Below are positions 23,102 through 49,517 of a stretch of 64,000 nt of DNA, in pieces; the stretch's first letter is position 1; each line of letters starts with the position of its first letter. The notes under the pieces were generated by a model. The model saw nothing but the letters and a program-made list of their open reading frames with translations. It was not told the DNA's origin and searched no databases. This DNA is from Ceratodon purpureus (Eukaryota > Streptophyta > Bryopsida > Pseudoditrichales > Ditrichaceae). The position numbers and the translations under genes were made by a program. The stretch lies in assembly GCA_014871385.1 (NCBI GenBank), contig CM026429.1, positions 10,817,640-10,881,639 on the forward strand, given 5' to 3'.

Positions 23102-24436
23102 TTAGGAACGCATGTACTGACTCGGACTTTTCAGGAAATTTATCAAGGCGTCGATCTCTGCAATGTCTGCCTTCACCCATCCTGTTGTTTCTTTTGCCTT
23201 CGCCTTTGTGTCCTCGTACTTTGCATCCGCAAGGGTGACGAGTTCAAGCTGTGCTGATACATCTTCCTGTAGATGTTTCACGCGGGAGTGGACAAAAGAG
23301 TTGTTGTTCTTCATCAATGATATGACGTCCTCACATAATTTAGTCTCTGTATTGGTGGAAGTTATGCCTCGGCCTTCGGAGTGAGAGGTCCCGCCGTCCT
23401 TCGCAGTAGGATTGGTGCCCTGCCAGATAGACGTCGCACGGTCTTGGAAACTATTCACTTGGAGAAGGTTGTCTTCCCATACTTTGAGCTCTGATTTCAA
23501 AGAATCCAGCTTTTCCTTCGATTTCTCAAGCTTCCCGGATGCCACGCGCTGTTGATGTTTCCACAGGTTTCCCTCGTCGCAAAGAGCGTCCCTTCGACTC
23601 TGGGCTGCCTTGGTTATGGCGTCTGTCAATTTGGCTAGCGCTGAGAGAATCAAGTCGCCGCGGTCGTCCACGTCGGAGGATAAGTCAGCAGAGAACCAAG
23701 TCCCGGATTGCCCGCCTGTCTCGCCTGGCGATTTCACTTCCTCCGCGGTCTTCTGTAGTGCATGCATTCCTGATCGTTTACGGCGGGGCACTGTTGTCGC
23801 CTCATGCATGGGTACCTGAACAGGGGGTATTCCACATTAGACATAGCCAGAACTGTGACATTGTCGGACCCCAATGAAAACAGTCCACGTAGTGAGTAAA
23901 TGACGTTATCGTTTAGAGAAGAAACCAATCAATGGGAGTTTAGTCCTTATACATTGTATGGAGAGTATGTAGTAGAGAAAGTCACTGACCAGGGGGGTGG
24001 AATCGCCCGTAGGGTTATTGGGTTCTGGCGTCACGTGTGTAAAGGGGATAGGGCGGCGGAGATTACTGTATTTTTTCAGCGGCTTCATCCTCGCGTTACG
24101 CTTCGCGCCCCTGCGATTTCCCGCAGCATATTGGGCCCAGTCAACCTGGATTCCGTCCTCCTCGGCGAGCAGACCTCGAGCAAAGTGCCACGGAAGCATG
24201 TCAGACGGATATAACTTCTTCTGGTGGACTCTCTCGTAGAGCTCCTTCACGTACTGCACGTACTCAAGTCCGCCGCGATGACGCCATGGATATGCTCCCA
24301 CGCTATTTGGACTACCTAGGCGTTCACGACACTCAGTCTTCGGGTAGAGGTGGCGTTCTCCCTTGCTGGGCAGAAACCCATCGCTCGAGAGGCATAGCGT
24401 GTCCCGATACCATTGCCTTGTGCATTCCGGCGCCAT
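23102..24436 (-). CDS. coiled-coil protein of the outer CACTA element, unknown function
   Basis: Two exons join cleanly: 24436-23990 and 23815-23102, with a 174-bp intron (donor CTG|GTCAGT, acceptor TTCAG|GTACCC), both in phase 0, giving 386 residues from MAPECTRQWYRD. The first ~110 residues carry motifs such as YPWRHRGGLEYVQYVKEL and YPSDMLPWHFARGLL that I do not recognise. About residues 206-271 are a charged heptad-like helix (KLEKSKEKLDSLKSELKVWE), with more helix near the C-terminus, so a coiled coil is likely. It lies on the same strand as, and on the far side of the inner element from, the transposase at 51035-55346, where a TNPA-like accessory gene is expected. Base composition matches that gene. 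The start is uncertain: the frame is open upstream and may join the exon at 25031-25192. Confidence 0.6.
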
Positions 24437-24767
24437 TGTGAAGCCCGCGCGCTGTTCTCTGCTGGTAACGAGGAGAGAAATATGAGCGTGGATGGAGAGG
24501 GAGAGCAAGTCTTATGAGACACATCCTAGAAACATTGAGACATACATGGAGAAGACGTAATTAGGTTGGTTATGGGCAAAGCGGCTGTACCGTCTCAGAC
24601 GTTAATGATGATGGGATCGGGTTTAGGGCCTTGCAGAAATCCCTATGGGCATGGAAGGCCCAAGGGACTCCATCGCCATGGCTCCATAAATGCCCCCCTC
24701 AAAAAATTGGATTTTCCATCATTACTATGATCCGATTCAGATTATCTTTCGACCTGTTCATAAATGT

Positions 24768-24945
24768 ATTAGCAACAAATGACTTAATGCATGCACCCCA
24801 ATTGACATAGCGCATGTGGAGGCAGACGTCACTGATACTAGTCTGGAATGGGAAGCATTAGCAACAAATGACTTAATGCATGCACCCCAATTGACATAGC
24901 GCATGTGGAGGCAGACGTCACTGATACTAGTCTGGAATGGGAAGC
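24768..24945 (+). repeat. 89-bp direct duplication
   Basis: A unit beginning ATTAGCAACAAATGAC and ending CTGGAATGGGAAGC occurs twice in tandem (24768-24856 and 24857-24945) with no visible difference. It sits inside the presumed intron between the exons ending at 25031 and starting near 24453. Confidence 0.85.
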
Positions 24946-25192: not shown

Positions 25193-25547
25193 CTTTGTCG
25201 ATTAGACAAAAACGAAGGGCAAGTTTACTTTGAATATTTAAGTTAATGTTGGATTATTACTCTTTCAACAACTCACAGGATTAAGAATGAAAAGGGTGTT
25301 TGTTCGCATTGTGTACTACTAGTACAAAAGTTGACGTCATTACTACTGCGATGCAGGTCTACGGTGTGTCTCATACATGTTCGGTGATAACAACTTGCGG
25401 CATTCCTTCGTCGTCTACTCCATTCCAGTCCGTCCTTCTTCATCAGGACCATCTTCATCATCTTCGTCTCTTTGAGTTTCCCCATGTTCCACGTCCATGC
25501 ATGGGTCATTCCCCATCTTCAGCCCCTGAACAGAATCCACATATTAT

Positions 25548-25560
25548 CACTACAAGAAAA
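25548..25560 (+). repeat. left terminal inverted repeat of the giant CACTA element
   Basis: CACTACAAGAAAA, identical to the inverse of 49505-49517. Preceded by TAT at 25545-25547. Confidence 0.85.
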
Positions 25561-26630: not shown

Positions 26631-26735
26631 TGTCTGCTAATTTGATTTTTAAAGTATATATATAAATAGAAAGATTCAATGTATAATTCAATGTTTTCAC
26701 TTCACTCTTCTATAGGTTCTAAAACCATAATTTCA

Positions 26736-28268
26736 TCAATTTTCCCAACTTATTGGTGTTCCCTCTATTAATTGATTTTTAAATCGGGTAATTGCCCAAC
26801 TTTTATTCACCAACGCTACCCCTAGCTTGAAATCTTTTAGTGATAAGGAATCCATATCAAACTTGAGCGTGCCATGGCTAAGATATTTGCTGAGCACAAA
26901 TATGCCAGCACCGTTATTGTTATCAAATTTTAAACCATGTTGGAAAACACCAAAATATCCTCCTCTTGGAACCCCCTCTGTATACCATGTTATCAAAGAG
27001 GCCTCAGCATCTGATCTGTCAATATGAGGCATAATATAGGAGTTCTTCGATACGTGTTGTTGATGTACGCATGTCTCAAATCCCTTCAAACCAATCGCTA
27101 AGGGAGTCATCGGTTCAATCTGATTTTGAAAAAACGTTCTAACCGAATCTCCAAATATATTTATTTCTTCCCAAATTGCTGAGGCAATAGTATCCCCTTG
27201 CCTTCTGATAGCCTCCTGCAAAGTCTCCGATATATTTTTCTGAGCATACCTTACCATGTTTCCAAGAGAAGTATCTCCTCCGTGTGCCGTGAAACCATGG
27301 CTCACAGATTTGTACCTCCCTCTTTTGGGATCTTTTTGATTTTTCTTCGCTTCGAAAGGGGAGCTTTCATAGTGCATGTTGACTGTAGACACCATTGTTG
27401 CATACATAAAAGGTGACTTCCAAATCTTTGGTATATAAATTAACAAGATATTTTGAAAAAATAGCCCATCTAAGCTTCTTATGTTGTGATTTGATATATA
27501 GTCTCCATCTATCAATAACATCGCTGATTTTGTTTTAGGAAAAATAACTTCATTCTCATATATATCTTCCCAAGTGTCTTTGTACTTATCATTTTGCCAG
27601 AAAGGCATTTTTTTTTGGTTTTTCTTCGCGCAATTGGGGACGTTTGTATATCCTATAAGACATCTCATATCAATATGTATACCAAATTTTTTTAGGATTA
27701 ATCTTTCAAAATATCCCTCCGGAACAAATGTAGTCTGGAAAACAATATACTTGGATAATGAACTTTTCTTCTTGGATGTAGACGGGGCTCTCTGATCAAG
27801 ATAATTGGTAAATTTGCCAAATAAGTCATGATACTCCATCAGAGATTCTATCTCAAACCCCTGTGCTATTGATATATCAAATACATCTTTGGTTTTCTTG
27901 CTAAAATCATAATCTTTTGGTACTGTGCATATTGGACAGGATATGCGGTTCTCATTCTCTGAGGCAAGTGCATCCAAACAAACTTTACAAATTCGATGAC
28001 ATGAATTCACATAGACTTGTTGTTTTTCTGAAATACCAATTTCGGATGTCTGTGATGGGTTAGTGAAAATACTCATAAAATATTCATGCTGCAAGGTTTT
28101 CTTACATGGTACCACATACAGCCTGTCGACCAGTTTCTGTTTATGGTTTGGAGTTTTACAACCCTTGATTGGGGAGTTGTATGCTAATTCCAAAACGTTG
28201 TATTGATCAAGAAATTTTAAATCCACCACCTCCTGGTATTTTCGCTTTTTGGGGATTTCTGACCCCAT
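26736..28268 (-). CDS. RING-like / 2OG-Fe(II) oxygenase (TET/JBP-like) protein
   Basis: A single uninterrupted frame of 510 residues starting MGSEIPKKRKYQ, inside the giant CACTA element. Residues 88-114 read NSCHRICKVCLDAL ... ISCPIC, the second half of a RING zinc finger (Cys90, His91, Cys94, Cys97, Cys111, Cys114); the first Cys pair is not evident. The C-terminal third fits a double-stranded beta-helix oxygenase: PHIDRSD supplies the iron-binding HxD (His415, Asp417), GGYF follows at 436, SHGT gives the distal His465, and Arg495 in ITRFKN is placed to bind 2-oxoglutarate. The HxD ... GG.F ... HGT pattern with RING-type fingers recalls transposon-borne TET/JBP-like proteins, which oxidise methylated bases in DNA. 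Substrate is not shown here; another 2OG oxygenase class is possible. Lack of stops or frameshifts suggests recent function. The coding region is more AT-rich than the transposase genes. Confidence 0.6.
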   Translation of the reverse strand: MGSEIPKKRKYQEVVDLKFLDQYNVLELAYNSPIKGCKTPNHKQKLVDRLYVVPCKKTLQHEYFMSIFTNPSQTSEIGISEKQQVYVNSCHRICKVCLDALASENENRISCPICTVPKDYDFSKKTKDVFDISIAQGFEIESLMEYHDLFGKFTNYLDQRAPSTSKKKSSLSKYIVFQTTFVPEGYFERLILKKFGIHIDMRCLIGYTNVPNCAKKNQKKMPFWQNDKYKDTWEDIYENEVIFPKTKSAMLLIDGDYISNHNIRSLDGLFFQNILLIYIPKIWKSPFMYATMVSTVNMHYESSPFEAKKNQKDPKRGRYKSVSHGFTAHGGDTSLGNMVRYAQKNISETLQEAIRRQGDTIASAIWEEINIFGDSVRTFFQNQIEPMTPLAIGLKGFETCVHQQHVSKNSYIMPHIDRSDAEASLITWYTEGVPRGGYFGVFQHGLKFDNNNGAGIFVLSKYLSHGTLKFDMDSLSLKDFKLGVALVNKSWAITRFKNQLIEGTPISWEN

Positions 28269-28544
28269 TCTTAGAATATATTTTCTGTAACTAATACTTG
28301 GTGAGAATTAGCCTCTCTAGCTTATTAGATTGTATGATATATATTTATGTATAAATATCTCATCAAATATTATATACAACTAATATGGAATTTAACTTTT
28401 ATTTTTAGATGTAAGCAATGAATTAGTTAATTCAAACTTCCAAGTAAAAAAATCTTTAACCTTTTGACTTGTATAAAAGGATGAAAGGTCTAATAAAATC
28501 ACACTACAAATTAAATTATATCTAAAATAAATATGATTAATTAA

Positions 28545-30622
28545 CCCCTAAAGGACAATGCGACAAAAAAGGGCTATTTTAGAGTTCGGGCATGTACCTG
28601 TGACTTCAATTGAATTCGAGATTTTATGAAATTTTTTATGAAAATAGGCCTTGGTGAGAGCTTCGTGTCGGTATTTTTTATTCTCAATTCCGATGTCGGA
28701 ATCAAAAGTTATTCACCTCTGAACTGCAAAAGCTCCTCCAAGGGTAGGAAGTTAGCCTATGAGGAAGTGACAGTGAATGCAGCAAATTCTGCCCAAAACT
28801 GCCCAAAATGGCCAAAATCTGTCCAAATACGAAACATTGAAATTCCACCAAAAATTGAGATTATGATATTTTTTCAAGAAAAAAAATTTGTATGAAACAT
28901 TCCTTCTGGAAAATTGGATTTCTCCAATAATGATTTAAAATTAGCTAATGCCTCTATACCAACATATATGTCAACAGTGTTGTCTGAACTTGATCCAGAA
29001 ACAGACAAGGCATTTCAATCGTGAGCCATTTTCTATCAAGAGTCTCTATTTGTATTTACTTACTTCATCTACAATGAAGTCATTGAAGTTACATTACTTT
29101 TTCATAACATAAAGCAACTAGAAATTCAATGCATTTTGTTTTAATTTGTTTTGTTTTTTTCAAGGAAGTACCGGTATGTTCTATATAAATTTCTGATATA
29201 TTTGTCTAAATTTGAAAAGAAGTAACTCATATTTAAAATTTTAAAATTTTCTCACTTATATTGAAAATCTGAATAGAATTTGTTCATTCTTTATCTGTTT
29301 GCATTCCATGTATTTGAGCTTTTACAAAGAAAATGAAAATCAAATTTAGCAATACATTATTAAAATAAACTGAATATCAATTTTTTAAGAAACAATTCTA
29401 AGAATCCCATTCATTCTGTAATTATAATATAAATATATTGAAATAAAAAGAAAACTTTGTTTTTAAAGAATGTTTAAAACTGCAAAACCATAAATTTGTG
29501 TTCATTTTAATATTCAAAAATTTCAAAATCGTGTTCAAAAGACATTTTTATTGTGATTTATAGAAATTATCATTAGACAATTAAAAATATAATGGAATGG
29601 AAAAGTACAAAATTATGTCGACTACCTATCTTTATGAATATAATTCTTCATTTTAATATATACATATATACATGCAAAAGGTTGAATTGACAGAAAGATT
29701 GTATTGAGTGATCTTCTATTATTTTCAATTTAGTATATTCTTTTTTAAAAGGATAAAAAATATTTTAAAATAAATATGAAAATAGGTTACAGGATGTACA
29801 ACCCATTGGTGCTATAGACGATTCAAATACATTTCATAAATTCAATTTAAATTATGAATTAATAAATTAATGTATCTTTTATGCTTCATTGTATTTTTTT
29901 CATTGACTAATGGAAACTAAAGATTATATTCATTTCCAGATGCATCAATTCTTATATCATTTTGATGATATATTCTAGCAAAACCGTATCATTAGAAAAA
30001 TACTTTAAAAAAAAATAAAAAATAAAAAATAAAAAAAATAAAATCATGCAATCACGAATTCTTTTTGAATCATTTTCTTCAAACAAATAAAAATCAAACA
30101 ATTAACTCATCGAAATATAAATATCGTAAAAATATGTATAGGCAAGGCAGTAGAGCATGTTCCCACCGTTCAGATTTTCAATCCAAATTTTATCAATATG
30201 ATATTTTTATTGTCAAAAAACGGCTTTTGTTTGTGAGTTTCAGTATACCCCCTAGCGGAAACTGATTTTTTGGGCAACCTTCCACAGTTTTTTTGTATAT
30301 GCTATTTTTTGGACATGTACCTAACTCACTTAGAAACAAGAAATTGGAAAGACACATTCCATATCTACTTTAAAAAATGGTGTTTTGGGCCTTCAAAACT
30401 CTGCTGTCCCCTTTTTGCGCAGGGAATAAAAACTTCTTTTTCCAACTTTGAATGTTGCGATCTTGCAATTGGAGAGGAATGAGTGTGTGATTTTTGGTGT
30501 ACATAGAGACATACAAGTAAGCTACAAGATCTTACGGCTAGATGTACTAATTAAGACCCCAATATTGCAAAATCCACCTTGCTTTAGAAGAGGGTCTGTT
30601 TTGAGGCAGTTTTGATGAAAAA
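28545..30622 (-). mobile_element. TTAA-flanked element, copy 3, inverted and interrupted
   Basis: Starts CCCCTAAAG after TTAA (28541-28544) and runs as the inverse complement of copies 1 and 2. Homology stops near 28890 and resumes near 30133 (TATGTATAGGCAAGGCAGTAG), so about 1.24 kb has been inserted. The far end fades at about 30622 (GCAGTTTTGATGAAAAAT) without a TTAA partner, so the element has lost its last few bases. Confidence 0.65.
28895..30132. mobile_element. 1.24-kb insertion within copy 3
   Basis: The insert is flanked by TATG on both sides (28891-28894 and 30133-30136), possibly a 4-bp target duplication. No clear terminal repeats. Its first ~130 bases are open on the plus strand and read like the end of a real coding exon (NIPSGKLDFSNN ... 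LSELDPETDKAFQS, stop near 29024); the remainder is AT-rich and featureless. It could be a captured 3' gene end or an unknown element. Confidence 0.4.
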
Positions 30623-30760
30623 TTTGATTTGTTTGTATTAAACAAAAGTTACATAATTTGCAATAATAACATATAATGTCTATAAGATGAGTTAAAAAAA
30701 TCTCTTTTTTAAAAAAAATGTTTTTTGTAAAAATAAAATGTTATTAAGCATATGTTTGTC

Positions 30761-32200
30761 TAATAAAAGAAAATGTAAACATATACTTATATGATTCTAA
30801 ACACCATATTATAAAAAATAAAATCATTCAATGTAAATTCCTTTTAGAATGCAACAAAATAAGATTGAATATTTACTTTTAATTAATTTTAAGAACTTGA
30901 GCTCCAAGAGTTCCTATTGATGCTCCATCACAAATAGCAGCCGCACCCAATAGCATTAATCTCTTAATCTGTTATCCAAAAATAAAATGAAAACTATAAT
31001 TTTGAAATTTTCAGCTCTTTTCTTCAATCATGATGAAATTTTAAATTTTGATCCATTCAAAATTATAATAATATTTTTCAAGATTGAATTAGATTGTGCA
31101 GATATTATGGTCAATACCTGTTGTAAGTATATGTGCATTTGCTGGTTGTTATAATATAATCCATTCACTTGGGCATCCCAAGTAATAAAAGAAAATGTAA
31201 ACATATACTTATATGATTATGAACACTATATTATAAAAAAAAAATCATTAAATGTAAATTCTTTTTAGAATGTAAATTTTCTTCAATTGTGATGAAATTT
31301 TAAATTTTGATCCATTCAAAACTATAATAATATTTTTCAAGATTGAATTAGATTGTGCAGATATTCTGGTCAATACCTGTTGTAAGTATATGTGCATTTG
31401 TTGGTTGTTATAATATAATCAATTCACTTGGGCATCCCAAGTAATAAGAGAAAATGTAAACATATACTTATATGATTATAAACACTATATTATAAAAAAA
31501 AATCATTAAATGTAAATTCTTTTTAGAATGTAAATTTTCTTCAATTGTGATGAAATTTTAAATTTTGATCCATTCAAAACTATAATAATATTTTTCAAGA
31601 TTGAATTAGATTGTGCAGATATTATGGTCAATACCTGTTGTAAGTATATGTGCATTTGCTGGTTGTTATAATATAATCAATTCACTTGGGCATCCCAAGT
31701 AATAAAAGAAAATGTAAACATTTACTTATATGATTATAAACGCTATATTATAAAAAAAAATTCATTAAATAAAAATTCTTTTTAGAATGTAAATTTCCTT
31801 CAATCGTGCTCAAATTTTAAATTTTGATCCATTCAAAACTATAATAATATTTTTCAAGATTGAATTAGATTGTGCAGATATTAGGGTCAATACCTGTTGT
31901 AAGTATATGTGCATTTGTTGGTTGTTATAATATAATCAATTCACTTGGGCATCCCAAGTAATAAAAGAAAATGTAAACATATACTTATATGATTATGAAC
32001 ACTATATTATAAAAACAAATTCATTAAATGTAAATTCTTTTTAGAATGTAAATTTTCTTCAATCGTGATGAAATTTTAAATTTTGATCCATTCAAAACTA
32101 TAATAATATTTTTCAAGATTGAATTAGATTGTGTAGATATTATGGTCAATACCTGTTGTAAGTATATGTGCATTTGTTGGTTGTTATAATATAATCAATT
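30761..32200 (+). repeat. five tandem ~238-405-bp bodies with junction motifs (~259-bp period)
   Basis: Five bodies starting TAATAAAAGAAAATGTAAAC follow each other. Bodies 2-5 are about 240 bp; body 1 is longer because it keeps about 150 bp that includes Bax inhibitor-1 exon B. The palindromic motif CTTGGGCATCCCAAG stands at each of the four junctions (starting about 31168, 31427, 31685 and 31944; spacing 258-259 bp) but neither before body 1 nor after body 5. The bodies fill the captured Bax inhibitor-1 intron. Confidence 0.85.
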
Positions 32201-32391
32201 CCTTGAACATATAAAATGGACAATAATGTATAATAAATTACGTCATATTCAATTATTGGAAGACTGATAAGTAGCCACGTGCTAAACAAAATGAACACTA
32301 TAAATGTAATGATTCCTCCAATATTCAATAAAGTATGAATGTATACTCCAATTGTTGATAAGAGCAGAGTAATAGCCAAAGTCGTGTAAAC
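30882..32391 (-). pseudogene. BI-1: captured Bax inhibitor-1 fragment (two exons)
   Basis: Exon A (32391-32242, acceptor ATTATAG|GTT, donor GAC|GTAATT) encodes 50 residues beginning VYTTLAITLLLSTIGVYIHT and containing LLNIGGIITF. Exon B (30968-30882, acceptor GATAACAG|ATT) reads IKRLMLLGAAAICDGASIGT. Joined in phase 0 they give EYD-IKRLMLLGAAA. This matches the N-terminal half of plant Bax inhibitor-1 (TMBIM family), an ER membrane suppressor of cell death: the VYLTL, WNIGG, PYEE.KRL and EGASIGPL landmarks appear in order. The first exon and all following transmembrane segments are missing, and exon B runs into a stop (30879-30881), so no full product is possible. The intron between the exons holds the 259-bp repeats. 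The position inside the giant element points to transposon capture of a host gene fragment. Confidence 0.8.
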
Positions 32392-32520
32392 CTATAATGA
32401 AAATGTAGATTGAATGCTATGTTGACAAGAACAAAATATTCGGGGTTACGACTCCTTTTAAAAATAATTAAAAACACATATTCGACATCAAGGACATTTA
32501 GGGTTGAGACTCCTTTTAGG

Positions 32521-33500
32521 GCATCCCAAGTACTCACTTGGGGTGCTTGGGCATCCCAAGTACTCACTTGGGGTGCTTGGGTATCCCAAGTAATCACTTG
32601 GGGTGCTTGGGCATCCCAAGTAATCACTTGGGGTGCTTGGGCATCCCAAGTACTCACTTGGGGTGCTTGGGCATCCCAAGTACTCACTTGGGGTGCTTGG
32701 CCATCCCAAGTAATCACTTGGGGTGCTTGGGCATCCCAAGTAATCACTTGGGGTGCTTGGGCATCCCAAGTACTCACTTGGGGTGCTTGGGCATCCCAAG
32801 TAATCACTTGGGGTGCTTGGGCATACCAAGTAATCACTTGGGGTGCTTGGGCATCCCAAGTAATCACTTGGTGTGCTTGGGCATCCCAAGTAATCACTTG
32901 GGGTGCTTGGGCATCCCAAGTAATCACTTGGGGTGCTTGGGCATCCCAAGTAATCACTTGGGGTGCTTGGGCATACCAAGTAATCACTTGGGGTGCTTGG
33001 GCATTCCAAGTACTCACTTGGGGTGCTTGGGCACCCCAAGTAATCACTTGGGGTGCTTGGGCATCCGAAGTACTCACTTGGGGTGCTTGGGCATCCCAAG
33101 TAATCACTTGGGGTGCTTGGGCATCCCAAGTAATCACTTGGGGTGCTTGGGCATCCCAAGTAATCACTTGGGGTGCTTGGGCATCCCAAGTACTCACTTG
33201 GGGTGCTTGGGCATCCCAAGTAATTACTTGGGGTGCTTGGGCATACCAAGTAATCACTTGGGGTGCTTGGGCACCCCAAGTAATCACTTGGGGTGCTTGG
33301 GCATCCCAAGTACTCACTTGGGGTGCTTGGGCATCCCTAGTAATCACTTGGGGTGCTTGGGCATCCCAAGTAATCACTTGGGGTGCTTGGGCTTCCCAAG
33401 TAATCACTTGGGGTGCTTGGGCATCCCAAGTAATCACTTGGGGTGCTTGGGCATCTCAAGTAATCACTTGGGGTGCTTGGGCATCCCAAGTAATCACTTG
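32521..33500 (+). repeat. 30-bp minisatellite, about 32 units in perfect register
   Basis: The unit combines ACTTGGGGTGCTTGGG with CATCCCAAGTAATC. About 32 consecutive units show no insertion or deletion; variation is almost confined to TAATC versus TACTC plus a few point changes. Each unit contains two inverted repeats (CTTGGG-CAT-CCCAAG and CCCAAGT-AATC-ACTTGGG). The first is the same palindrome that marks the junctions of the 259-bp repeats just downstream. Because 30 is a multiple of three, long open frames appear on both strands; these are artefacts of the repeat. Confidence 0.95.
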
Positions 33501-33744
33501 GAGTACTAGGAAAATCATATACAAAGTCCTAACTAATCAATATAGAATATGAATAAATTAAAAAAAAAAAAACCATTATTTGGGATATTTGAGCTTAAGA
33601 AAGAGGACTAGAGGAAATGTACTTGAATGCATCATTGAAGAGTATATAAAGACTTATGACTTATTTCATTTATGTTAATGTTTTTTTTTGGAAGTCAAAT
33701 TTTCACTTATTTTTTTTGAATGTTAAATTTTCACTTTTTTTTTT

Positions 33745-33950
33745 TTTTTAATTTTCCATTTATGATTCTTGATCTTCCATTTAAGATTTTTGATCTTCCA
33801 TTTATGATTTTTGGTCTTCCATTTACGATTTTTGATCTTCCATTTTTTGTTTTTGATCTTCCATTTATGAATTTTAATCTTCTACTTATGATTTTTAATT
33901 TTCTATTTAAGATTTTTAAGTCTTCATTTGTAATTTCAATCTTTCATTTA
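33745..33950 (+). repeat. 21-bp degenerate minisatellite
   Basis: The phrase GATCTTCCATTTATGATTTTT recurs about nine times with substitutions. An open frame across it is a repeat artefact. Preceded by poly-T tracts. Confidence 0.75.
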
Positions 33951-34759
33951 TAATAAATCAAACTTTCAATTATGTGAGGTGCTTCAAGTATTGTGCTCAA
34001 AGCCTTAAGATTTTTATTATAAAAATTACAGTTAAGTATGCTGGACAAGCTAAGCTACATTTGAGCTTATGTTAAACGTGATGTGAGTGCCCATAAACCT
34101 CGGAAAATAAAAATGCATATTCATGCACGTCGGATTTCTGATATCGGATTCTCAATTATCCGCACCATTTTTGTTTTTATAAAATATCAATAATCCTCGT
34201 ATCGGAATCGTTATCAGATGTTACCAGAAAAAATACATGACAAATGTCGTGTTCTCAATATGTCAGCGAAACAGTAAGTATCAGCCATCTTGGAACAAAT
34301 GTACAATCATCGCGACTACTCCCGGGAGCGCTCTAAAATTCCTGGGAGTTGATCCGTAATACAGACAGATGGCGTGCAATATTAGACGCTCACAACTTCT
34401 CCGACGATGAGAGACTCAAAGGTAATACTACACTTGGCGCAATAACAACGTGACTGGGAATCTATGGTAAACAAAGCTCCAGGTAAATTAATACGACTTA
34501 CTAGGTTACTGTGGCCAAAGCGGGTGCAATGGGGAGGCGGATACTGGGAGCTGGAAGGCCAACTCCCCGACCAACACCTGGGAGCCGGCGTTTCTTCTTG
34601 TGTTCTGTCCAGTTTAAAACACTTTTGTGGACAACATGAAATAATAAGCAGAAAGCAATAAAACAGAGCAATAAAACATGGATTCTGTTCCGCCTTCTTC
34701 ATGTACAGAGTAAGAGTTCTAAAAGAACAGCCTACACTACTTCCATGTAAAAGTCTGTA

Positions 34760-37700
34760 CTACTCCTCCTCCGAGGACTCCCCTACGTCTCTGTCGTATA
34801 CATCAGCAGTTTCCTGTTCAACCGTACCATAGAACTCTTCAACACGTAATATCCTACCCCTGTTTTCTTCTACTCCATTCACTCCGTCGTCTTCAACCCC
34901 AACTCTCAGACCTTCAAACTCAATATCCCGCCCATGTCGGAAAAGTTCCCCACTGTCCTCCTCTACAGTGTTTCCCACAACCCTTCTACCCCTCGGTTCG
35001 GTTCGGATCACTATTTTCCATCCGGGAGCTTCTGAGCAATCCACGTAGAAAACCTGCTGTATCTGTGAAGGAAAGGCAAATGAGTCCTCTCCAAACTCAA
35101 GGATGCGATTGAAATTTGCAATTGTGAATCCCCATCTATCACGCTTAACTGTTGCGTTAGCCCCCCTGTAATTTGCACGTACCCAGGAGCCGATAAGGAC
35201 AGTCTGACGAAATGCCCCGTAGTCTAACTCTACAATCTCATCAAGATATCCTACATACTCCAGTGCTGCCAAAACCGGGTTCCTGTCTTGAAGACCGAAT
35301 CTGCATGGTCGCACAAAGGTAGCCGCGATGCCAGAATCACAAGTCTTCAGAGACGTCTCAACGCTCCGAACTCTCAAGTGGTACCCAAATGCGTACAGAC
35401 TTCGATATTTTCTAGCCCTCCTCGCTGGGAATTTCGATGCAGATTCTAATGTAGGATCAATATCTGCACCAACCTCTTTCTCTGACTGCACTGTTGACTG
35501 TAGCCACTCCGGAAATTGTTGAATCTCTACCAGTTCCGGGGGATAATTAGGAGCTCGTGCTCCATTCCGACCCTGATGGCGAGCCCTCCATCGCTGTCTT
35601 GCTAACGTCCTGTCTTCAACGACGGATTGGTATCTACTGCAACAATCAGCAATACAAGACATGTGAAGTGCGGGAAGCTGAACATAGTACATAACATTTA
35701 TTCTTGCGTTATTAACAAGAGCTATCAAGCAACACACGAAACACCATACTCTGATTACTTCCGTCCATCATACTGAATAAAACTTTTTTGTTACTCTTAT
35801 AACATAAATGGACTGTAGTACATTCAGTAGAAACACAATGAGAGTTTAGAGATGCAGACTTACTCCCGGTAAGGCTCGGTGATATCGACATTGTCGATGA
35901 CAAATGAATGCATTTGTCGCCAGAGTGTATCATCCAAATCCCTGAATTTACCCTTGCCCTCCAATACCAAGTCCGTCATAATGGGATCCTCGTCGCTGTC
36001 CCACACCTTCCTCATAAATTCTTGTCCACCGCCAAAGTACTCTGTGACAAAACCGCATGCTTCCTCCACCTCATACCCTTTTGCCATGCACCCCTCAGGT
36101 TTGGCCATGTTGCGTACGAATCCTTTCAAAGTTTTAAAGTAACGCTCGTACGGATACATCCATCTCACGTGAACAGGTCCACATATGAAGAGTTCTTCTA
36201 CAAGATGAATTGTTAAATGGACCATTACATCAAAAAATGATGGGGGAAAAATTTTCTCTAACATACAAAGGGTTTCAGCACATTCTTCAAACATCGCTTC
36301 CCTTTCTTGAATGTCAACCGTCTTCGCACAAATCCTTTTAAAGATCCTGCTAATCCTAATGATTGTTGACGTCAACGCATCATTGTCTACGTTCCTTAAG
36401 CAAGCTGGCATTAAGTCTTGCAGAAGAACATGATAATCATGGGATTTTAGGCCAGACAATTTTCCCTTACTGATCTTCGAATGTAATGAACTACAGAAAT
36501 GTGTGGGCATTTTTATTGATTTCAGGGTGTTCAGAAAGAGTACTCGAGCTTCTTTGGTCAGAACATACCCTGCATCCGGCATGAAAGCACGCCCCTCTTG
36601 ACCCCTAACCCTCCTGAGCCACAACGGCCTTCGTATGTTTCTGTTCTGCAAGTCCAATCGCACCTTCGGTCCATCCTTCTCTCCGAATATAGTTTTCAAC
36701 AGGTTCTCCGCAAGATTCTTCTCACAGTGCATTGGGTCGACCAAATTCCGAATGGGCAATTCCTGGGATAACAAACACAAAACAGTTGGTCAATACTCAA
36801 TGGATTTATGGTTCATGAGGCTTAGCATGCCATTTTCAAAATAAGTTCTCAAAACGGTGATCTAGCACAACCTCGACAGAAAGTACGACGAACATTCTAG
36901 ATCCAGTAAGAGGCACTGTTGTAGTAGCTATAACTGTCATAAACTGTTTAAATATTACACAAGACCAGACAGGGTATACTTTGGCTAAGTAACACGAAAG
37001 AAAGGAAGGTGGAGTTCCCAGATTGTTTAGGATTATAAAAGCCATAAGAATCGTTGACACCAGAGTTTGCTGTACAAAGGGCAGAAGAACAGGACAGTCC
37101 CAAATTATTGCCCTTAAGCTTAAACAAAGTAATCTAAATCAAAAACTATTAAAGTAATCAAAATCAAGTACAAAAACTAGGAATGGACCAAATAGCTCCC
37201 TTGAACAGTAATATACGTTTAATCTAAAGACCAATGTTGCAGACGTCCAACAACCTTTGTTACTTAGAAACAATATACTGTAAAAAAATTAGATGTAACC
37301 ACATAACTCGGCAGAGTAACGAATCATATATGCGGACAGAATACTTTCCTTCTCACGATGTTATGCTACAGCTCATCAATTCCAATGTATTTGACAAAAA
37401 CGCGAAAACAACTAAAACAACAGACATAATGAGAACTCAAACATTATTGAAGTTCACAATTTCACACAGTAAAGTACAAAATTAGTGTTTTCCAAGTATG
37501 GCGGCTCGTAGCATCCGAAATGGTCTGAATCCATTCATGCAAAACGGAGATAGGAACTACTTACAGCCACAATTGGGTAAGGATCATACAACAAGAATTC
37601 AGCAACCATCATAGCACCACCCGATAATATTAAGTTAAGGCAGCACAACATGTCACCGAAGCATGGACACAACTGAAATAAACCAATGAGCTGATTTGAT

Positions 37701-39469
37701 ATGCGTACTCACTTTCCAATACGGCAGAGCATATAAAATACTTGCTCTTTTAACACCGTGGATCTTCACAGGGTCTGCATCGGAGTCCTCGATGCCACCA
37801 TCTCGCAGCCAGGCTGCACGATCACGACCCTGCTCCAATATGTCTGTACCACTACGACGACGTGGGTAATTCATCTCCTCTGTCTCGTTATTGAAGGCTC
37901 CTCTGGATCGACGGAATCTGTGATCACTTGTAAGAAACCTCCTCCCCCCCATGTATACCATTTTATTTAATATCCTGGAGTGCTCGGCGCATGTTCCAGG
38001 TCCGCATACTGGACATGCGATGTAACCTTTCACCGTTTGCCCAGAGACCAAACCGTACGCTGGGAAATCGTGGACTGTCCACATTAAAATCCCCTTCATT
38101 AAAAAAGACCTATTCCCTTCATCTTTTGAGAAATTCCTCGCTGGAACTCCGTGCCAGAGCTGTAAGAGATCTCTAACAAGAGGTTTTAGGTAGATATCTA
38201 TAGTATCGGAAGTCGGGGCTTTTGGTCCGGGAATTAAAATTGAAAGGTTAAGGAAAAAATTCTTCGTAGCAAGCCACCCCGGGAAATTGTATATGGCTAT
38301 TAAAATAATCCATGTAGAATGCTTCGACGACTGATTACTGTGCGGACAGACTCCATCAGCCACCAGAGCGAAACGCAGATGTGTGGCAAGATTTTGAAAT
38401 TCAGGGTACATCCTGTCTATCTCCCGCCATTGCAAACTATCTCTAACGGACGACATTTTCTGGTTATCTACACTAATGTCGGAGTAATGCTCTAGAAGAC
38501 TCGCCAACTTTGGGCACTTATATATCCTCTTCAGTTTTTTTATAAGTGGAAAATAACGCATGACCGCTGAGGGAATTGAAGTGGATCCAGCGACGTACCT
38601 CGTTCTACCACAAACCGGGCAATTAAGTAACTCCCCATTGACCTCTCCTTCGTAGAGAATGTGTCCCTCCGGACAGCAATGGATCCTGTCATGCTCTAAT
38701 CCTAACTTTCGAATCATTGATTTAAGTTCGTACGATGTTCTGGGCAGGCAGTTAGATCTAGGGAGTAAAGTCCCGGCAAGGTAGTTTAGGAGAGCTGTCA
38801 GGAAATTGTCCGAAACACCAAAGACCGTCGCCAAAGTCATGAGTACGATACCTGCCTGCAATCTGTTTTGTGTGGAGCCGTTATAAACTGGATCAACGCA
38901 TTCGTTGATGGTGTTTTGGAAGTCCACTCCGTCATCTTCGGTGTCATTGTCATCGGACCCTCGAACATCCGCCCTAGGCGCATCCTGAAATGCTTCTCGC
39001 TCCAGATTGTCTGCTCGCCCATATGCATCATAAACCATTCGACGAAATTGAACTCCTGAATCTGCGGGCCAGTTCAAGTTTTGTTGACCCTGCTCTCGTT
39101 CATCGCGTGCTCTGTATGGCTCTCCGTCTTCGTCACTTGCCTCAGGACCTTGTAAGCCTCTTCCATCCACCGTCTGCCAAAAACATGTGTTGTAATCTGT
39201 TCCTATTAATTAAGGCTCGAAAACGGAACCATTCTGCATGCACACAAGTCATCAATAAAAAAATAATGTATTGCACGGAAAATTACCAGAATCGGGTGGG
39301 GTAGATAATTGTCTCTTCCGTATCTGCGATGGTGTTTTGATACTGTTGCCGAACTCCTCACTCTAGCACCTCTACAACGACAACAAGCACATGGGTACCC
39401 GGGTAGCCCCATGCGGTTCGCAATTGACCTTTCAATGTGATAGGCTGCTGATAATCTCCTTTGCCTCAT
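34760..39469 (-). CDS. CACTA transposase of the giant element (TNPD/TNP2-like)
   Basis: Four exons join in phase: 39469-39287, 39173-37713, 36762-35864 and 35633-34760 (donors GTAATT, GTGAGT, GTAAGT; acceptors GGCAG, CCCAG, AGTAG), giving 1138 residues with no interruption. Order of domains: an N-terminal Cys motif (YPCACCRCRG) like the transposase-associated domain; Transposase_21 in exon 2 with a probable catalytic ADG (Asp about 334) and HDFPAYG (Asp about 430), and a CPVCG pair at both 245 and 450; the exon 2/3 junction YALPYWK-ELPIRN ... PMHCEKN, a hallmark of the family; DUF4218 in exon 3 (HLTIHLVEELFICGPVHVRW); DUF4216 in exon 4 (YLDEIVELDYGAF, QQVFYVDC). It binds the element ends and catalyses excision and insertion in the nucleus. 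The outer transposase has the same intron positions but is clearly diverged. The first ATG could be preceded by a non-coding exon. Confidence 0.9.
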
Positions 39470-42400
39470 CTCAAGTTCGTTGATTTCGCTGGGAAGTTAT
39501 ACTGCATAGGACAGCGGGCCAATACCGATGGATGATGAGTGAGTAAACATAAGGAAAATGTATATTCGTTGTACTACATATAGAGACACTAATCTTCAAG
39601 ACTATGACATATATACGTAAAGCGTAACACTTTTCGATATCATTTTGGGAATAAGGCCAGTAACATTTAAGTTCTCAAAGTTGTGACATGGAAACGCGGA
39701 CTACTCAAATGGTGCCTCTCTGTCGACAAAAAGGCAACTTCGCAATATAAAGCCGTACTCATAACTGCAGGTAAACTACTTGGAAGAGCTCACCAGTAGT
39801 TGTAGTGGAGTTGAATTAGAGATTCTCCGGGTTGTGGCCCGGATGATACATCGATAATCAATCACATGAATATGTTGCCGAAATGTGGCTATCCATCTTT
39901 ATGCCGGCGATGAGGCACCGCGATAGAACCTGCATAAATATAAACAAATATTAATTTCGGAAAAGTAGGTATGGCCCGGTCTTACATTAGTGTAAGCCAA
40001 ATTTTTATATGTACAGAATGAGTGACAGTCATGCCTGTACCCAGATCATTTACTAATAACAAGAACAGTCTAGATCCTTAACCCTAAGTTTGAGTAGGAT
40101 AAGAGACATAGCCGCGTATTGTGTACAGTTCCGCCGAATAGACGATGACGGTGCTACATTGATCCTAACTACGACAAAAGCATGAGTAGTTCCCATAGAA
40201 CTCGTCGACTACAAGCAGTGTTGGATACGAGTATGGGGTGTTTCTTGCATTGAACATCACCTTTTTTGTCTAGATGATTGGTAGATGTTCCAGGTGCTCC
40301 TCCTCTATTAACAATGTTCCCTAACATTAGGAAACCATCCACTGTCCACAATTGGCTTAGGCGCCGTTCCTACGCAGGTAGTGCCACAGCATATGTTCAA
40401 GAAGAACCATTCTGGACACTAAAGGTGGGAGATGTTCAGAAGGATAAGGAGGCTTCATACCACGAGCACATGGAATATGAAACCCTGGAAGAATAGCGTT
40501 ACTTCCACTCACGGAATGGAATTGAAGCGAAACAGACACTTAGGTTACAAAACCAACATACACACCGCATATGTTTCTTCTCCCTCATTTACTCTAAATG
40601 GAACATCGCATTAGGGTCATTACTGCGTAGTGAACTACGTTCACAGAATTAGGGGCTACATATCTACAATGCTAATTATGTATGTATGAGCAAACACCCA
40701 CTTGGAGAAATCCAGAAGGTTATATCGAATCTTTAAAAAAAATGCGTACCGTACCTAGAAAGTTTGTCCTGATTTCAACTCTTTCTGACAATTGTATCTC
40801 TGTTTCTAGTGTAGTCTCCAGCGACCTCTGCCATAGAACTTCAACAACAAATGTCATGTCCCCATGCGCAACAACACCGTTTCACTAAAAATCAAAGAAA
40901 CAGCGACGATGACTGTAAGAGAAGACCACAAATCGACATAGGGATACAGAGGGGAGTATATGGAAGGAGAAGTACCTTGGAGGATTGAAAGCGGAAGGCC
41001 AGGCGCTTGGTAGTCCAGGAGTAGTCACAATAGATGTCCTCCCGTGGTCTACGAAGGGCACGGGGAACGTTACAACCCTACTGGAAGAGAAGCTCATGTA
41101 GTGTTTTCATGAGTACATGTGTTTCCTCGTAGGGGTGAGTTGCATGTGTTTGAAGTGGACGTGCCTCGGCTCACCCTGGACGAAAACCTCGCGTACAGGA
41201 ACTCACGACATCTTAGAACCCTAATGACCACAACAGTGCCTCTTTCTCCAAAGACTACATCGCATGTCCCTCTGCCGCCACATATGGTGTGCCCCTATGG
41301 ATGGCGTTCCATGTCAGAAACTCTTTAGGAATTGTTTTGAAGAATTGTCGTTGGCGTACCACGGACACGCGTGGGACTGTGTAAGGAGAGTTCTTTCTAG
41401 TTTCGGTGATCTTATTTTCGTTCCTTTAGAGAAGTTAAATTTCCGGCTCTCGGTGGTTGCTGGTATGGTGGCGCTGAAGTGCTTGGCGTGGACGCTGTCT
41501 TCAGATCAATCGTCTGAAGTACATGGCTGCAAATTACAACCGTAACGGAACGTTGCAATGCTGGACATGTACATGTCTACTTCCAAGCAACGACTGCTGT
41601 TGGTATGGCAATGTAGGGTAAGCCATGAAAGCACCATGGTTTTTGTTTGCATTGTAGTCTAAGTGAATACATTTGTTGGAGGAGGCGCTTAAAGAAGCAC
41701 ATGCGCAAGAAGCATCAGCGTCGCCTCTGACCTAATGCTATTCACGTAAACTGCTGATCATTAATACACTATGCTACTTCTCTGCACGTTTGCGCTTACT
41801 GTTCTGTACTTCTAAGAACCTGTTAGAAGTAATTGATTAATTCAAATGCCTCAATGCACCAAAATGATATGCTACTCACTGGAGTCCTTCTCCTCCACCG
41901 CTTCAACCGATATGCTCATGCCGGAATTACAGGATCAGATATCGGTCCACGTAGTTTTTCAATTGTGGTAAGTTGTTGTTGGAACCGTAGAAGTAGGCGA
42001 GGGACGTGTGGTCCAGCACGATGTGATCCTATCTTTTACTATTTTTTTCTAAAACAACCTCTACAATGCTCGAAATGTATGCGACTTCACCCCGAGTGTC
42101 ATGCACAGCATGCAGGCACCGTTGCCAATGTTCTCGGAGTCGAATGTACGCCGTAGGATATGATATTTATCCATTTATTTCTATTATAATGGACTTTGAT
42201 AATTCATTACGCCTCCCTCTTCGATGTAGGTGGCTTAATTTGGCCTCTAGTCTCCAAGGGCCGTCAGCAAGCAACTCTTATCTTTAATTTTGTTGGCGAT
42301 TCTTGGACGTAGTGGCAGTATGTACGTAGTGGCTCGATGGCCGCCTTACCCACCACAGAATGCGACCCCAGTCCGCCATGTCTCGGAAGGCGGCTTAGGG

Positions 42401-44709: not shown

Positions 44710-45510
44710 TACCTTTTCTTTCGGTCCAGTTGGGAGAGTCACTGCTGTGTTAATATCAATCATGTTTCACACCTTCCAAGATACATCACAGCGGTGGAGC
44801 AGGGCTGGAGGTAGAGGCGTGATGGTTGTCGTTATGGAGGCGAGGGTTTCCTTGTTTTGAAAGTAGACAGAATTTTGGTGGTGTAAGTTGATTCGTGGCT
44901 AGAATATGGGATGAGGCAACTTTGTGGACTTCAGGTACTGTTCTGCATCTATGTTATTAAAGTTTTTTAATGTTTTAGAGGTACAATGAGACGTTTATTT
45001 GAGGATTACTGTGTGCTTCCTTGTTTTCTCATGCACTTGTGGGTAGCTCATGCGGGGTGGAGTTGATGAAGGCGTTCTAATCATATAGCAGTACTGGATA
45101 GGGATTTGACCATTTCCAAATACAGTGGACGTAAATCCTTTCAGTCTTTTATGTTTTCCTTTCAATACTCTGCGGTGAAAACAGTACGTAAAGGAGTGAC
45201 AACAGGATAATTACGTCGTCAACTTGCACACATATCGTTAAATAAGTGAGTGTTCCAACTAGAGCTTCTCCACTACAGGTACGTCCCGGATGCATTCTTG
45301 AATGTCATATGAGGGTGAGCAGAAATGTACTTAGTAGAGTCCCTGGAAATTTCTGTAACGTGCTACTATAGAGGATGGCCACCATATGACATTCCCTCCA
45401 CATTAGAGTAAAACTATGAGTTGGCGGAATTCTATACTGTCAAGGAATCCAAACAGAGTATTAATACATAGTCACGAAGTTTTTTTCCTGGATGTAGAAT
45501 CAAAGTGAGA
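44710..45510. other. gap upstream of the TNP1-like gene
   Basis: No coding region is supported. The stretch should contain the promoter of the plus-strand gene starting at 45511, but no TATA box or repeat stands out clearly. Confidence 0.45.
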
Positions 45511-48048
45511 ATGGCACCTGCGACAAAGGGGAGGCGACAGCCTGAGCCATGGAAGACAGGGAGAGGAAAGGCGAGACTTGTAGTGGAAACTCTAGGGCAT
45601 CCCACTTTGGATACGGCTGCCCTCGGTGGATGTGAAGTTCCTGATCAAGCGCAAGTGCAAGAGACTTTGACTGTTAAACGGCCGGTAGGACGGAAAACCA
45701 AGAAGAAACCTCCACCAGGGCCGGACGCAGCAACGTCATTGGAAGATGAATATTTCAAAATAACAGAATCCAAGAGGGGATGTCCTATTCGAGGCAAAGG
45801 AAGCCTAGGCGTTGTGGTCGAAGATACTCCTGGTGTTGCATCGGGCAGTACAGGTTACGATACGAGTTATTTATTTAAACGATCTCCAGAATATGTATGC
45901 CAGATTGAAGGAAACCATATTTATATAATCATGTTATTGTTTGGCCCAGCATGTAAGAGTATTATGTCATTTCAATAGTATACTAACATATACTAATATA
46001 CCGAATTGCACAGGTAAAAATATGGAGTCGCGAAGGGAGGACGGTAAGATCACAGTAGACAATGATGAAGATACCACAGTGCCAGTGGCTGCAGACAAGG
46101 AAAGAATAAAACTACCTTCGGCAGGAGCGTCCACCGGAGGTCGAAAGGACGTGGAGGAGGAGCGTGCTGGCCGCCCAGTAAATCGAGCGTCGTCTCGGGA
46201 GGTATTGTACACTATATCATCGGATGAAGATGATACATATACCGAAAAACGCCGAGAGCGCAGTCGAAGTCCACGTCGGAGGTATAGATCGCCGTCATGG
46301 GGACGTGAAAATGTGTTCTCTGAGGTAAGTCATAAGTTAAGAGCTTCTGCATATGTTATTGCGACATAATGATCACAGGTGCATTTCACTACAACACTGC
46401 TCATTTCTGTATTGTGCAGTTGTAAGCTGTGAATTACCTGTTTATGTTGGACATTGTATTAATAAATAATAATCTAATGCCGCAGAGGTCCCCCATGTAC
46501 GTATCGGAAATGCGGTACAGAGCGCACAGGCGTGGACGGTCGCGATCGATTTCAGCAGAAATCGATGATATAATAAAAAGACATCACTCCGGTTCTTCTA
46601 GCCACAAAAGAAGTGGTAAGGATTTTCGTGAAATGAGCTCAGAGGACATGCGACATAGAGGATACGGTCGCCTTACTAGTGGTCGCAGGAATGCATCGGA
46701 CGACAGGGGAATGGAATCACCAAGGAGCCGAGGGCAGAGGCAATCGGCGTCTCCAAGAACACCGCCTCGGCGACCAAGGAGGGACGTGCATGGCTTTGTG
46801 GATAGCAGCACGTCAAAGAGGTACAGAGTGAAGGAAGAGGGGGAAGTCGAGGAAGTAGATCATGGGGAAGGATTTGAAATGGCACCGGCCACGAAAAAGT
46901 TTCTGCCAACATTGTCGCTGAATAAGGAAACCATGATGAGAAGGAATCGTCGGCAGAGGGAGATAAGTAGGGAAGTAGATGATGATCGGCGACGACAGGA
47001 AGGTGAGCGGCGTCACTACATCAACGTCAACGAGGACGGGAAGCCCTATGGCTTGGGAATCTCCGTATGGAACGACACAATTGGGAAGCTGGTGAGAGGT
47101 CTTGACCCGTCGTTTATAGATATACGACAGCAGCCGTTTCACCTAATGGAGGTTTTAATGGAAAGACTCAACGACGATTTTGAGTACAGTGGTAAAGTGA
47201 ACAGGGCTTGGTTACGTACAAGAATTGGGAACTCCTTGTCTTCTTATCGGCATGAGCTAATGAGGCTAATTCAGGCCAAAAGTGAACGCCCACCCTGGGT
47301 GAAGGAGGCCATATGGACGAGACTAACAGAGCTTGAGGGCTCTGAGAAATACCGCATGAAATCACAGCAGATGCGTTATGCGAACGCGTGCCGAAAAACA
47401 AAAGGACGGACTGGCCCGATTGGGGAGGCAGGAGTAGCAGAAAGACTTCGCATGCAACTAGGAAGATACCCCGATCCTGAGGAAGTGCAGGAAGAAATGA
47501 ATAGAGACAAAGGTTATTCCGGCAGAGTTAGGAAACCAACTCTCCCACAGGTGAAGATCAGCGAGCAAGAGAAGGTGTTGGAGGAGGAGGGACTGCAATA
47601 CAAGGAGTCTTCTTTAGGCTCGGGAGAATCACGTGATCACATTTCCCCGTTATCCACTAACGCTCCTGCAGTCTTGGAAACAGGGGTGTACATGTCTGTA
47701 GAGTCTTGCACGGTGGCAGATAAAGACAGTGCCCACTATGATGGAAAGGAGGAGGGGCATCACCCTTTGGCAAGGATAATCCTGAAACAAATAGACGATC
47801 TGCGTAGCGCCGAACATGTAGATGTGGCTGAAGTCGAAATGGTAGTGAAGTCCCTAATGGAGCAGGTGAGAGCACTCGACACTCGAAAAGTAAATTCATC
47901 TGAGACGGGGCCATTGCACAGTGCTCTTAAAAACGTTGTGAAGGACACGACAATCAGTACACCTGCAGTTATTATAGACATGCCAGCAGTTGCAGCTGTA
48001 AGATTCACTGAACATGACCTACTCAATTATAATTGTTGCCAGATGTAG
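45511..48048 (+). CDS. TNP1/Transposase_24-like accessory protein
   Basis: Three exons join in phase: 45511-45853 (donor ACAG|GTTACG), 46014-46324 (acceptor GCACAG, donor GAG|GTAAGT) and 46486-48048 (acceptor CCGCAG), giving 738 residues from MAPATKGRRQPEP. The first ~380 residues are rich in Arg/Ser (RRERSRSPRRRYRSPSW, SPRTPPRRPRRD), like a nuclear RS domain; MAPATK recurs near residue 350. About 395-560 resembles the plant Ptta/En/Spm accessory family (Transposase_24): GKPYGLGISVWNDTIGKLV, then NRAWLRTRIGNSL, W..LT.LEGSEKYRMKS and RTGPIGEAGVAERLR. Such proteins bind subterminal repeats and assist the transposase. It is divergent to the transposase gene. A donor-like GCT|GTAAGA at 48000 may splice to further exons downstream, so the C-terminus is uncertain. 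Confidence 0.65.
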
Positions 48049-49504: not shown

Positions 49505-49517
49505 TTTTCTTGTAGTG
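49505..49517 (-). repeat. right terminal inverted repeat of the giant CACTA element
   Basis: TTTTCTTGTAGTG, the exact inverse complement of 25548-25560, followed by TAT at 49518-49520. Confidence 0.85.

What the first reader, a model, noticed from the sequence alone, without database searches (positions are those of the whole stretch)
26736..28268. TET/JBP-like 2OG-Fe(II) oxygenase with a partial RING as CACTA cargo
Seen: an intact 510-codon frame with HxD (415/417), GG.F, HGT (His465) and Arg495 plus a CHxxCxxC...CPxC finger. Known: TET/JBP-type enzymes oxidise methylated bases, and related proteins are carried by some eukaryotic transposons. Inferred: the element may encode its own DNA-demethylation or base-modification activity to escape silencing. 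This would be an unusual self-de-silencing strategy for a plant DNA transposon.
Basis: partly seen in the sequence, partly recalled or inferred. Interest (0 to 1): 0.85.

Follow-up and report, generated by a model that had tools for sequence, protein, structure and literature searches.

The report
CMD1-like DNA-modifying oxygenase inside CACTA transposon
An intact gene inside a plant-type jumping element appears to encode a distant relative of enzymes that chemically alter methylated DNA bases; whether it helps the element escape silencing, or is only a passenger, could not be settled.

Summary
Its length is not chance. It lies inside a CACTA element bounded by CACTACAAGAAAA inverted repeats and a TAT duplication, 25548-49517. 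No Pfam oxygenase model matched. The carboxy-terminal domain has one listed match in the PDB, the algal TET homologue CMD1. E 1.1 is not significant alone. But all three iron ligands, the 5mC-binding Asp350 and Trp358, which in CMD1 takes the 2-oxoglutarate space, are in register. A divergent TET/JBP-type domain is therefore probable, nearer CMD1 than TET, but not proved: single-sequence AlphaFold models failed (pLDDT 31) and the 2OG-binding Arg is not confirmed. The cargo claim is weaker. The gene sits in an AT-rich block with a Bax-inhibitor-1-like exon relic, a diverged repeat and tandem arrays, perhaps captured host DNA. Other copies could not be examined because the genome search did not complete (23 calls). 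TET/JBP genes in CACTA-type elements are known in fungi; my searches listed no plant case.

The parts
26736..28268 (-). P0001, intact 510-aa frame without intron, candidate TET/JBP (CMD1-like) oxygenase
26802..27056 (-). oxygenase core, residues 405-489: H415xD417, D420, W428, GG436-437, H465, K481
   Evidence: residues 405-468 align with CMD1 335-400; positions
27927..28001 (-). half-RING finger, residues 90-114 (CHRICKVC...CPIC)
   Evidence: Pfam zf-RING_2 E 0.0041, below its cut-off; TRIM32 in PDB E 0.037
25548..25560 (+). left terminal inverted repeat CACTACAAGAAAA of element E1; TAT duplication at 25545-25547
49505..49517 (-). right terminal inverted repeat CACTACAAGAAAA of E1; TAT duplication at 49518-49520
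34760..39496 (-). E1 transposase gene, several exons (Transposase_21, DUF4218, DUF4216) with GT..AG signals at the junctions looked at
   Evidence: E 1.7e-61, 5.2e-36, 1.6e-6; the last just below its curated cut-off; junctions
45472..48048 (+). E1 second gene (168-, 146- and 540-aa stop-free stretches); the 168- and 540-aa ones had no Pfam match; a role as TnpA-like partner is inference
26650..34200 (.). AT-rich block (borders by eye from GC) that holds P0001; looks captured or nested
   Evidence: GC steps; CpG values; no convincing border repeats
28541..30623 (-). dispersed repeat (pieces 83-88% identical to copies outside E1), split by about 1.24 kb, starting about 270 bp upstream of P0001
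30878..32391 (-). two exon-like relics (about 32242-32391 and 30878-30968, edges by eye) resembling Bax inhibitor-1, with a 259-bp tandem array between
   Evidence: Pfam Bax1-I E 0.035, below its cut-off, on the joined pieces; array; sequence

Best explanation
P0001 is an intact gene without introns for a divergent Fe(II) oxygenase of the TET/JBP class, closest among solved structures to the algal 5mC-modifying enzyme CMD1. It lies inside one 24-kb CACTA element. Inferred action: the protein binds DNA, a base (most likely 5-methylcytosine) flips into the pocket, Asp420 reads its N4, iron held by His415, Asp417 and His465 activates oxygen, and the methyl group is altered. The co-substrate may be ascorbate, as in CMD1, or 2-oxoglutarate. 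The half-RING would be a small zinc-binding contact module rather than a working E3. Shown: the frame, the motifs, the alignment and the element ends. Inferred: fold, substrate, co-substrate and any benefit to the element. I think it somewhat more likely that the gene came in with a captured AT-rich segment than that it is an old, selected part of this element family.
For: The only PDB sequence listed below E 10 is CMD1, in two overlapping queries (E 1.1 and 1.0). Aligned: 16 of 64 residues identical with one 2-residue gap, including H345/H415, D347/D417, D350/D420, W358/W428, GG368-369/436-437 and H397-G-T/H465-G-T. The local score of 66 was not reached in 5000 shuffles of P0001 (maximum 56) or 5000 of the CMD1 piece (maximum 60); of 270 stop-free stretches of the window, P0001's own included, the next best scored 38. 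CMD1 paper, abstract and passages (PMC7854593): H345, D347 and H397 bind Fe; D350 bonds the 5mC N4; W358 occupies the place of the TET2 Arg1896 side chain. The element ends are identical 13-bp inverted repeats with a TAT/TAT duplication, and GTTTCAGTTGTT recurs near both (the recurrence was not tested against chance).
Against: E 1.1 is not significant, and the matched domain alone has i-Evalue about 9. Chance matches of that order do occur here: residues 120-374 hit a poly(A)-binding protein at E 0.5, and the two-sequence profile hit MmoD at 1.3. The shuffle test took the best PDB match and is not corrected for the 177,635 sequences searched. An 84-aa query cut to the core gave no PDB match, nor did the whole protein list CMD1. 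Pfam Tet_JBP and 2OG-FeII_Oxy_6 did not match P0001 at E up to 10, although a CMD1 piece reaches 0.051 and 0.012. The two-sequence profile found no other TET. AlphaFold without relatives gave pLDDT 30.8 and 31.3. No Arg stands where the 2OG-binding Arg is expected, and counterparts of CMD1 Arg244, Phe245, Phe416 and Arg418 were not found. No relative was found in the collections searched, so there is no evidence of selection.
Confidence: 0.55

Rival explanations
1. Self-de-silencing cargo: P0001 is a fixed gene of this CACTA family and modifies 5mC on the element so that host methylation silences it less, as proposed for fungal TET-carrying transposons. (This and the next reading are about role, not enzyme class, so they can hold together with the best explanation.)
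For: Intact frame inside complete element ends, same strand as the transposase. Fungal EnSpm and other DNA transposons carry TET/JBP genes (PMC12730594). Of the window genes compared, its codon usage is most like the E1 pieces (correlation 0.64-0.76, against 0.30-0.60 for the others).
Against: 6.5 kb of AT-rich, CpG-poor, gene-relic-bearing DNA separates it from the transposase. Its third-position GC is 0.356 against 0.437-0.500 in three E1 transposase pieces. No second copy was examined.
Confidence: 0.3
2. Passenger: the AT-rich block is host DNA, or a nested mobile element, caught in E1, and P0001 is a host or foreign gene with no role for the element.
For: BI-1-like exon relics, an interspersed repeat with copies outside E1, tandem arrays and low GC in the same block; CpG o/e 0.31 in 28268-34200 and 0.55 in P0001 against 0.80-0.85 in the rest of E1. 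CACTA elements with captured gene fragments and satellite arrays are described in angiosperms (PMC8978399, passages).
Against: No convincing target duplication or inverted repeat at the block's borders. P0001 is intact while the BI-1 relic is broken. Codon usage is nearest to E1's genes. Flanking DNA outside the elements varies widely in CpG (0.33 to 0.88), so CpG does not mark host origin.
Confidence: 0.5
3. Another Fe(II)/2OG oxygenase class (AlkB-, prolyl-hydroxylase- or JmjC-like), or no oxygenase at all, with a chance resemblance to CMD1.
For: No Pfam oxygenase model matches. HxD occurs in 54% of shuffles. Chance PDB matches at E 0.5-1.3 occur with pieces of this protein. A Lys rather than an Arg is nearest the expected 2OG site.
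Against: The one listed PDB match is a TET-type enzyme with all iron ligands and the base-reading Asp in register; 0 of 10,000 shuffles reach the score.
Confidence: 0.2

Closest known systems
CMD1, 5mC-modifying enzyme 1 of Chlamydomonas reinhardtii (PDB 7cy4-7cy8)
   Same: Three Fe ligands, 5mC-reading Asp350, Trp358 and GG...HGT align in register.
   Different: Only 16 of 64 residues identical; no CMD1 match from residues 120-374; half-RING added; carried in a transposon; activity untested.
Fungal TET-carrying DNA transposons (PU, AG, PE types; Kojima 2025, PMC12730594), including EnSpm/CACTA families
   Same: A TET/JBP-type gene inside a CACTA-type element with its own transposase.
   Different: Those are fungal families. 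Here the host looks like a green plant, one copy is seen, and the nearest solved enzyme is algal. HxD is kept, unlike the HxE of the PE type.
JBP1/2 and TET1-3 / NgTET1
   Same: HxD...H iron site; a base-reading Asp or Asn after it (Asp234 in NgTET1, Asn1387 in TET2; PMC7854593, passages); that it lies three residues after the iron-binding Asp there too is recalled.
   Different: No Arg at the 2OG C5-carboxylate place; no sequence match listed; CMD1-type Trp present.
CACTA elements with captured gene fragments and satellites (PMC8978399, passages; soybean Tgm-Express, PMC1947982, search listing only)
   Same: Gene relics and tandem arrays inside CACTA ends.
   Different: P0001 is a complete frame, not a fragment.

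Membership tests
TET/JBP oxygenases | HxD...H iron triad in a recognisable sequence context | tested here: met
   In register with CMD1 H345/D347/H397
TET/JBP oxygenases | Significant match to the family profiles Tet_JBP PF12851 or 2OG-FeII_Oxy_6 PF20515 | tested here: not met
   No match at E up to 10; a 66-aa CMD1 piece itself reaches only 0.051 and 0.012
TET/JBP oxygenases | Double-stranded beta-helix fold | tested here: inconclusive
   AlphaFold single-sequence pLDDT 30.8 and 31.3
TET/JBP oxygenases | Asp/Asn that reads the N4 of the flipped cytosine | tested here: met
   D420 aligns with CMD1 D350 (role from PMC7854593)
TET (2OG-using) subgroup | Arg that binds the 2OG C5-carboxylate after the second iron His | tested here: inconclusive
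   K478/K481 at +13/+16; R495 only at +30; region not aligned
CMD1 subgroup (ascorbate-using) | Trp358 in place of the 2OG-binding space | tested here: met
   W428 aligns with W358
CMD1 subgroup (ascorbate-using) | Arg244/Phe245 and Phe416/Arg418 base-binding residues | tested here: inconclusive
   Outside the aligned stretch; no CMD1 match upstream
CMD1 subgroup (ascorbate-using) | Ascorbate-dependent 5gmC formation | not testable with these tools
   Needs purified protein
RING finger | Eight zinc ligands, C3HC4 or C3H2C3 | tested here: not met
   Only the second half matches, below the Pfam cut-off
CACTA/EnSpm transposon | CACTA inverted repeats with 3-bp duplication | tested here: met
CACTA/EnSpm transposon | tnp2-type transposase | tested here: met
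   Transposase_21 E 1.7e-61
TET-carrying transposon family | Oxygenase gene shared by several copies of the element | not tested
   The genome search did not complete (23 calls)

The most novel reading that the evidence does not exclude
A green-plant CACTA transposon carries its own CMD1-type enzyme that uses ascorbate to glycerylate (or otherwise modify) 5-methylcytosine on its DNA. It would be a plant counterpart of fungal TET-carrying transposons, and a CMD1-like enzyme outside the few green algae where such proteins are reported, used to dodge methylation silencing without needing ROS1-type demethylases.
Probability: 0.12. Interest if true: 0.92.

Novelty: new variant of a known kind. Interest (0 to 1): 0.62.

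Why it matters
The review passages read here describe active demethylation in plants through ROS1-type glycosylases (PMC11065753). [quoted passage not shown] A CMD1-like gene inside a plant-type transposon would be a new place to look for 5gmC or oxidised cytosine. It would also be a direct test of whether transposons outside fungi arm themselves against methylation.

Tried and rejected
Plus-strand reading: full of stops. Relatives: none confirmed in IMG/VR (4 scans), GTDB genomes, phages, plasmids, PHROGs or NCBIfam. The six IMG/VR pattern hits look unrelated: the best BLAST E was 0.038, over the stretch that the pattern itself selects. Structure: two AlphaFold jobs without relatives gave nothing usable, so no fold search was run. 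Nested-element borders: no convincing inverted repeat plus duplication around the AT-rich block. Inverted repeats for the second CACTA-type transposase region: none convincing, so 'E1 nested in a second CACTA' stays a guess. Rfam and tRNA scans of the window: nothing. Recalled JBP1 and NgTET1 iron-ligand numbers could not be checked by the two searches made (no paper); NgTET1 and TET2 Arg numbers were later seen in PMC7854593. The Bax-inhibitor-1 call rests on Pfam E 0.035 plus a remembered Arabidopsis protein. Absence of a plant report rests on searches of an open-access library. Their lists were capped (for example 20 of 1,089 and 10 of 3,179 papers), and 'tet jbp' found nothing in the papers listed. 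Two papers I wanted (10.1093/nar/gkt573, 10.1073/pnas.1321818111) are not held.

Full report
What is there. A single frame of 510 codons runs from ATG at 28268 to TGA at 26736 on the minus strand. Simulated 64-kb sequences of local or window composition never gave a stop-free run above 220 or 215 codons in 100 trials each. GC at the three codon positions is 0.41, 0.34 and 0.36.

Where it sits. Identical 13-bp ends CACTACAAGAAAA stand at 25548 (plus) and 49517 (minus), each flanked by TAT, giving a 23,970-bp element, E1. Of five matches to that 13-mer with up to two mismatches, these two are the exact ones. GTTTCAGTTGTT recurs near both ends (not tested against chance). E1 carries a tnp2-type transposase on the minus strand (Transposase_21 E 1.7e-61, DUF4218 E 5.2e-36, DUF4216 E 1.6e-6, the last just below its cut-off). 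The exon junctions looked at show GT..AG signals. A second gene lies on the plus strand at 45472-48048; the two of its three stop-free stretches that were scanned had no Pfam match. P0001 ends 1,188 bp inside the left end and starts 6,492 bp beyond the transposase stop.

What surrounds it. P0001 lies in an AT-rich block, about 26650-34200 by eye from the GC steps. The block holds a 259-bp array and a 30-bp array. It holds a copy of a dispersed repeat of about 0.85 kb, split by about 1.24 kb, its pieces 83-88% identical to two copies outside E1. By eye the copy at 14.5 kb has inverted ends TTAACCCCTAAAG..CTTTAGGGGTTAA, less exact in the others. The block also holds two exon-like stretches resembling Bax inhibitor-1 (Pfam Bax1-I E 0.035, below cut-off). 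CpG observed/expected is 0.31 in 28268-34200, but 0.49 and 0.70 in two array-free parts (28269-31017, 33502-34200), 0.55 in P0001, and 0.80 and 0.85 in the rest of E1; outside DNA ranges from 0.33 to 0.88. Third-position GC is 0.356 in P0001 against 0.437-0.500 in three E1 transposase pieces. Codon-usage correlation is highest with E1's genes (0.64-0.76) and lower with the others compared (0.30-0.60, dyskerin 0.38). That last result goes against a purely host origin. On balance I read the block as captured or nested, but no convincing border signature was found.

What it encodes. Pfam gives only a sub-threshold RING (zf-RING_2 E 0.0041, 17.8 bits against 27.3), lacking the first cysteine pair. 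No oxygenase model matched the whole protein or three pieces at E up to 10. The lead came from PDB sequences. Residues 375-500 have one listed match below E 10 among 177,635 distinct sequences, the Chlamydomonas enzyme CMD1 (E 1.1), and residues 387-510 give the same match (E 1.0). Against this: an 84-aa query trimmed to the core gave none, the full-length protein did not list CMD1, and chance matches of similar strength occur. Residues 120-374 hit a poly(A)-binding protein at E 0.5 and not CMD1, and a profile of the two pieces, besides CMD1 by construction, hit only MmoD at E 1.3 and no other TET. What gives the match weight is which protein it is and what lines up. In the alignment 16 of 64 residues are identical with one 2-residue gap, including CMD1 H345, D347 and H397 (iron), D350, W358, G368-G369 and the HGT at 397-399. 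Score 66 was reached by 0 of 5000 shuffles of P0001 and 0 of 5000 shuffles of the CMD1 piece. Among 270 stop-free stretches of the window, P0001's own included, the next best scored 38. These controls are not corrected for CMD1 being the best of a database search.

What the residues mean. In the CMD1 paper (PMC7854593; abstract and passages), H345, D347 and H397 hold iron, H345A and D347N abolish activity, and D350 bonds the N4 of flipped 5mC. W358 takes the place of the TET2 Arg1896 side chain, so that 2-oxoglutarate would not bind properly and vitamin C is used. P0001 has the same residue at these five places. Counterparts of four other residues that matter for 5mC (Arg244, Phe245, Phe416, Arg418) were not found; they lie outside the aligned stretch. 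In CMD1 Arg410, which aligns with the 2OG-binding Arg of TET2 and NgTET1, is 13 after His397, so Lys478 or Lys481 would be nearer; this region is not aligned and stays open. CMD1-type, ascorbate-using chemistry is therefore a fair guess and 2OG use is not excluded.

What was not possible. AlphaFold on one sequence gave pLDDT 30.8 (whole) and 31.3 (residues 375-500), with no usable fold. The genome search did not complete in 23 calls (listed in Tried and rejected), so no second copy, no selection test and no host name are available. No relative was confirmed in four IMG/VR scans, two GTDB scans, phages or plasmids (46, 118; 48; 62). These are virus, prokaryote and plasmid collections, so absence there says little.

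Known background. Kojima 2025 (PMC12730594; abstract, passages and sections 3.4 and 4.2 read) describes TET/JBP genes in eleven lineages of fungal DNA transposons, EnSpm/CACTA included, with function not experimentally validated. [quoted passage not shown] PMC8978399 (passages) describes captured gene fragments and satellites in plant CACTA elements. My literature searches listed no plant transposon with a TET/JBP gene. They cover open-access text only, their lists were capped, and I opened only a few of the papers listed.

Verdict. The escape-from-silencing story is plausible by analogy with fungi but rests on one copy in an odd, host-like block.

Noticed in passing
51035-54866 (-): A second tnp2-type transposase (Transposase_21 E 1.4e-64; DUF4218 and a below-cut-off DUF4216) just right of E1, same strand. 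With the GC-rich left flank at 22.2-25.5k it suggests E1 may have jumped into another CACTA element, but no convincing end repeats were found.
   Followed up: partly
23102-24511 (-): Two open frames (235 and 200 aa) without a Pfam match above cut-off left of E1, perhaps the second gene of that other element; an 89-bp exact tandem duplication lies at 24768-24945.
   Followed up: no
14496-15364, 20814-21638 and 28541-30623: Dispersed repeat of about 0.85 kb with TTAACCCCTAAAG-like inverted ends (by eye), perhaps a non-autonomous DNA transposon; the copy near P0001 is split by about 1.24 kb.
   Followed up: partly
32519-33501: About 33 head-to-tail copies of a 30-bp unit (95% matches) that leave long open frames on both strands; these are probably repeat artefacts, not genes.
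   Followed up: no
10847-12535 (-): Dyskerin (Cbf5-like) gene as one open frame with DKCLD, TruB and PUA domains, the clearest host gene seen in the window.
   Followed up: no
41582-44709: Near-identical duplications inside E1 (245 bp at 100%, 382 bp at 98.7%), recent by their identity.
   Followed up: no
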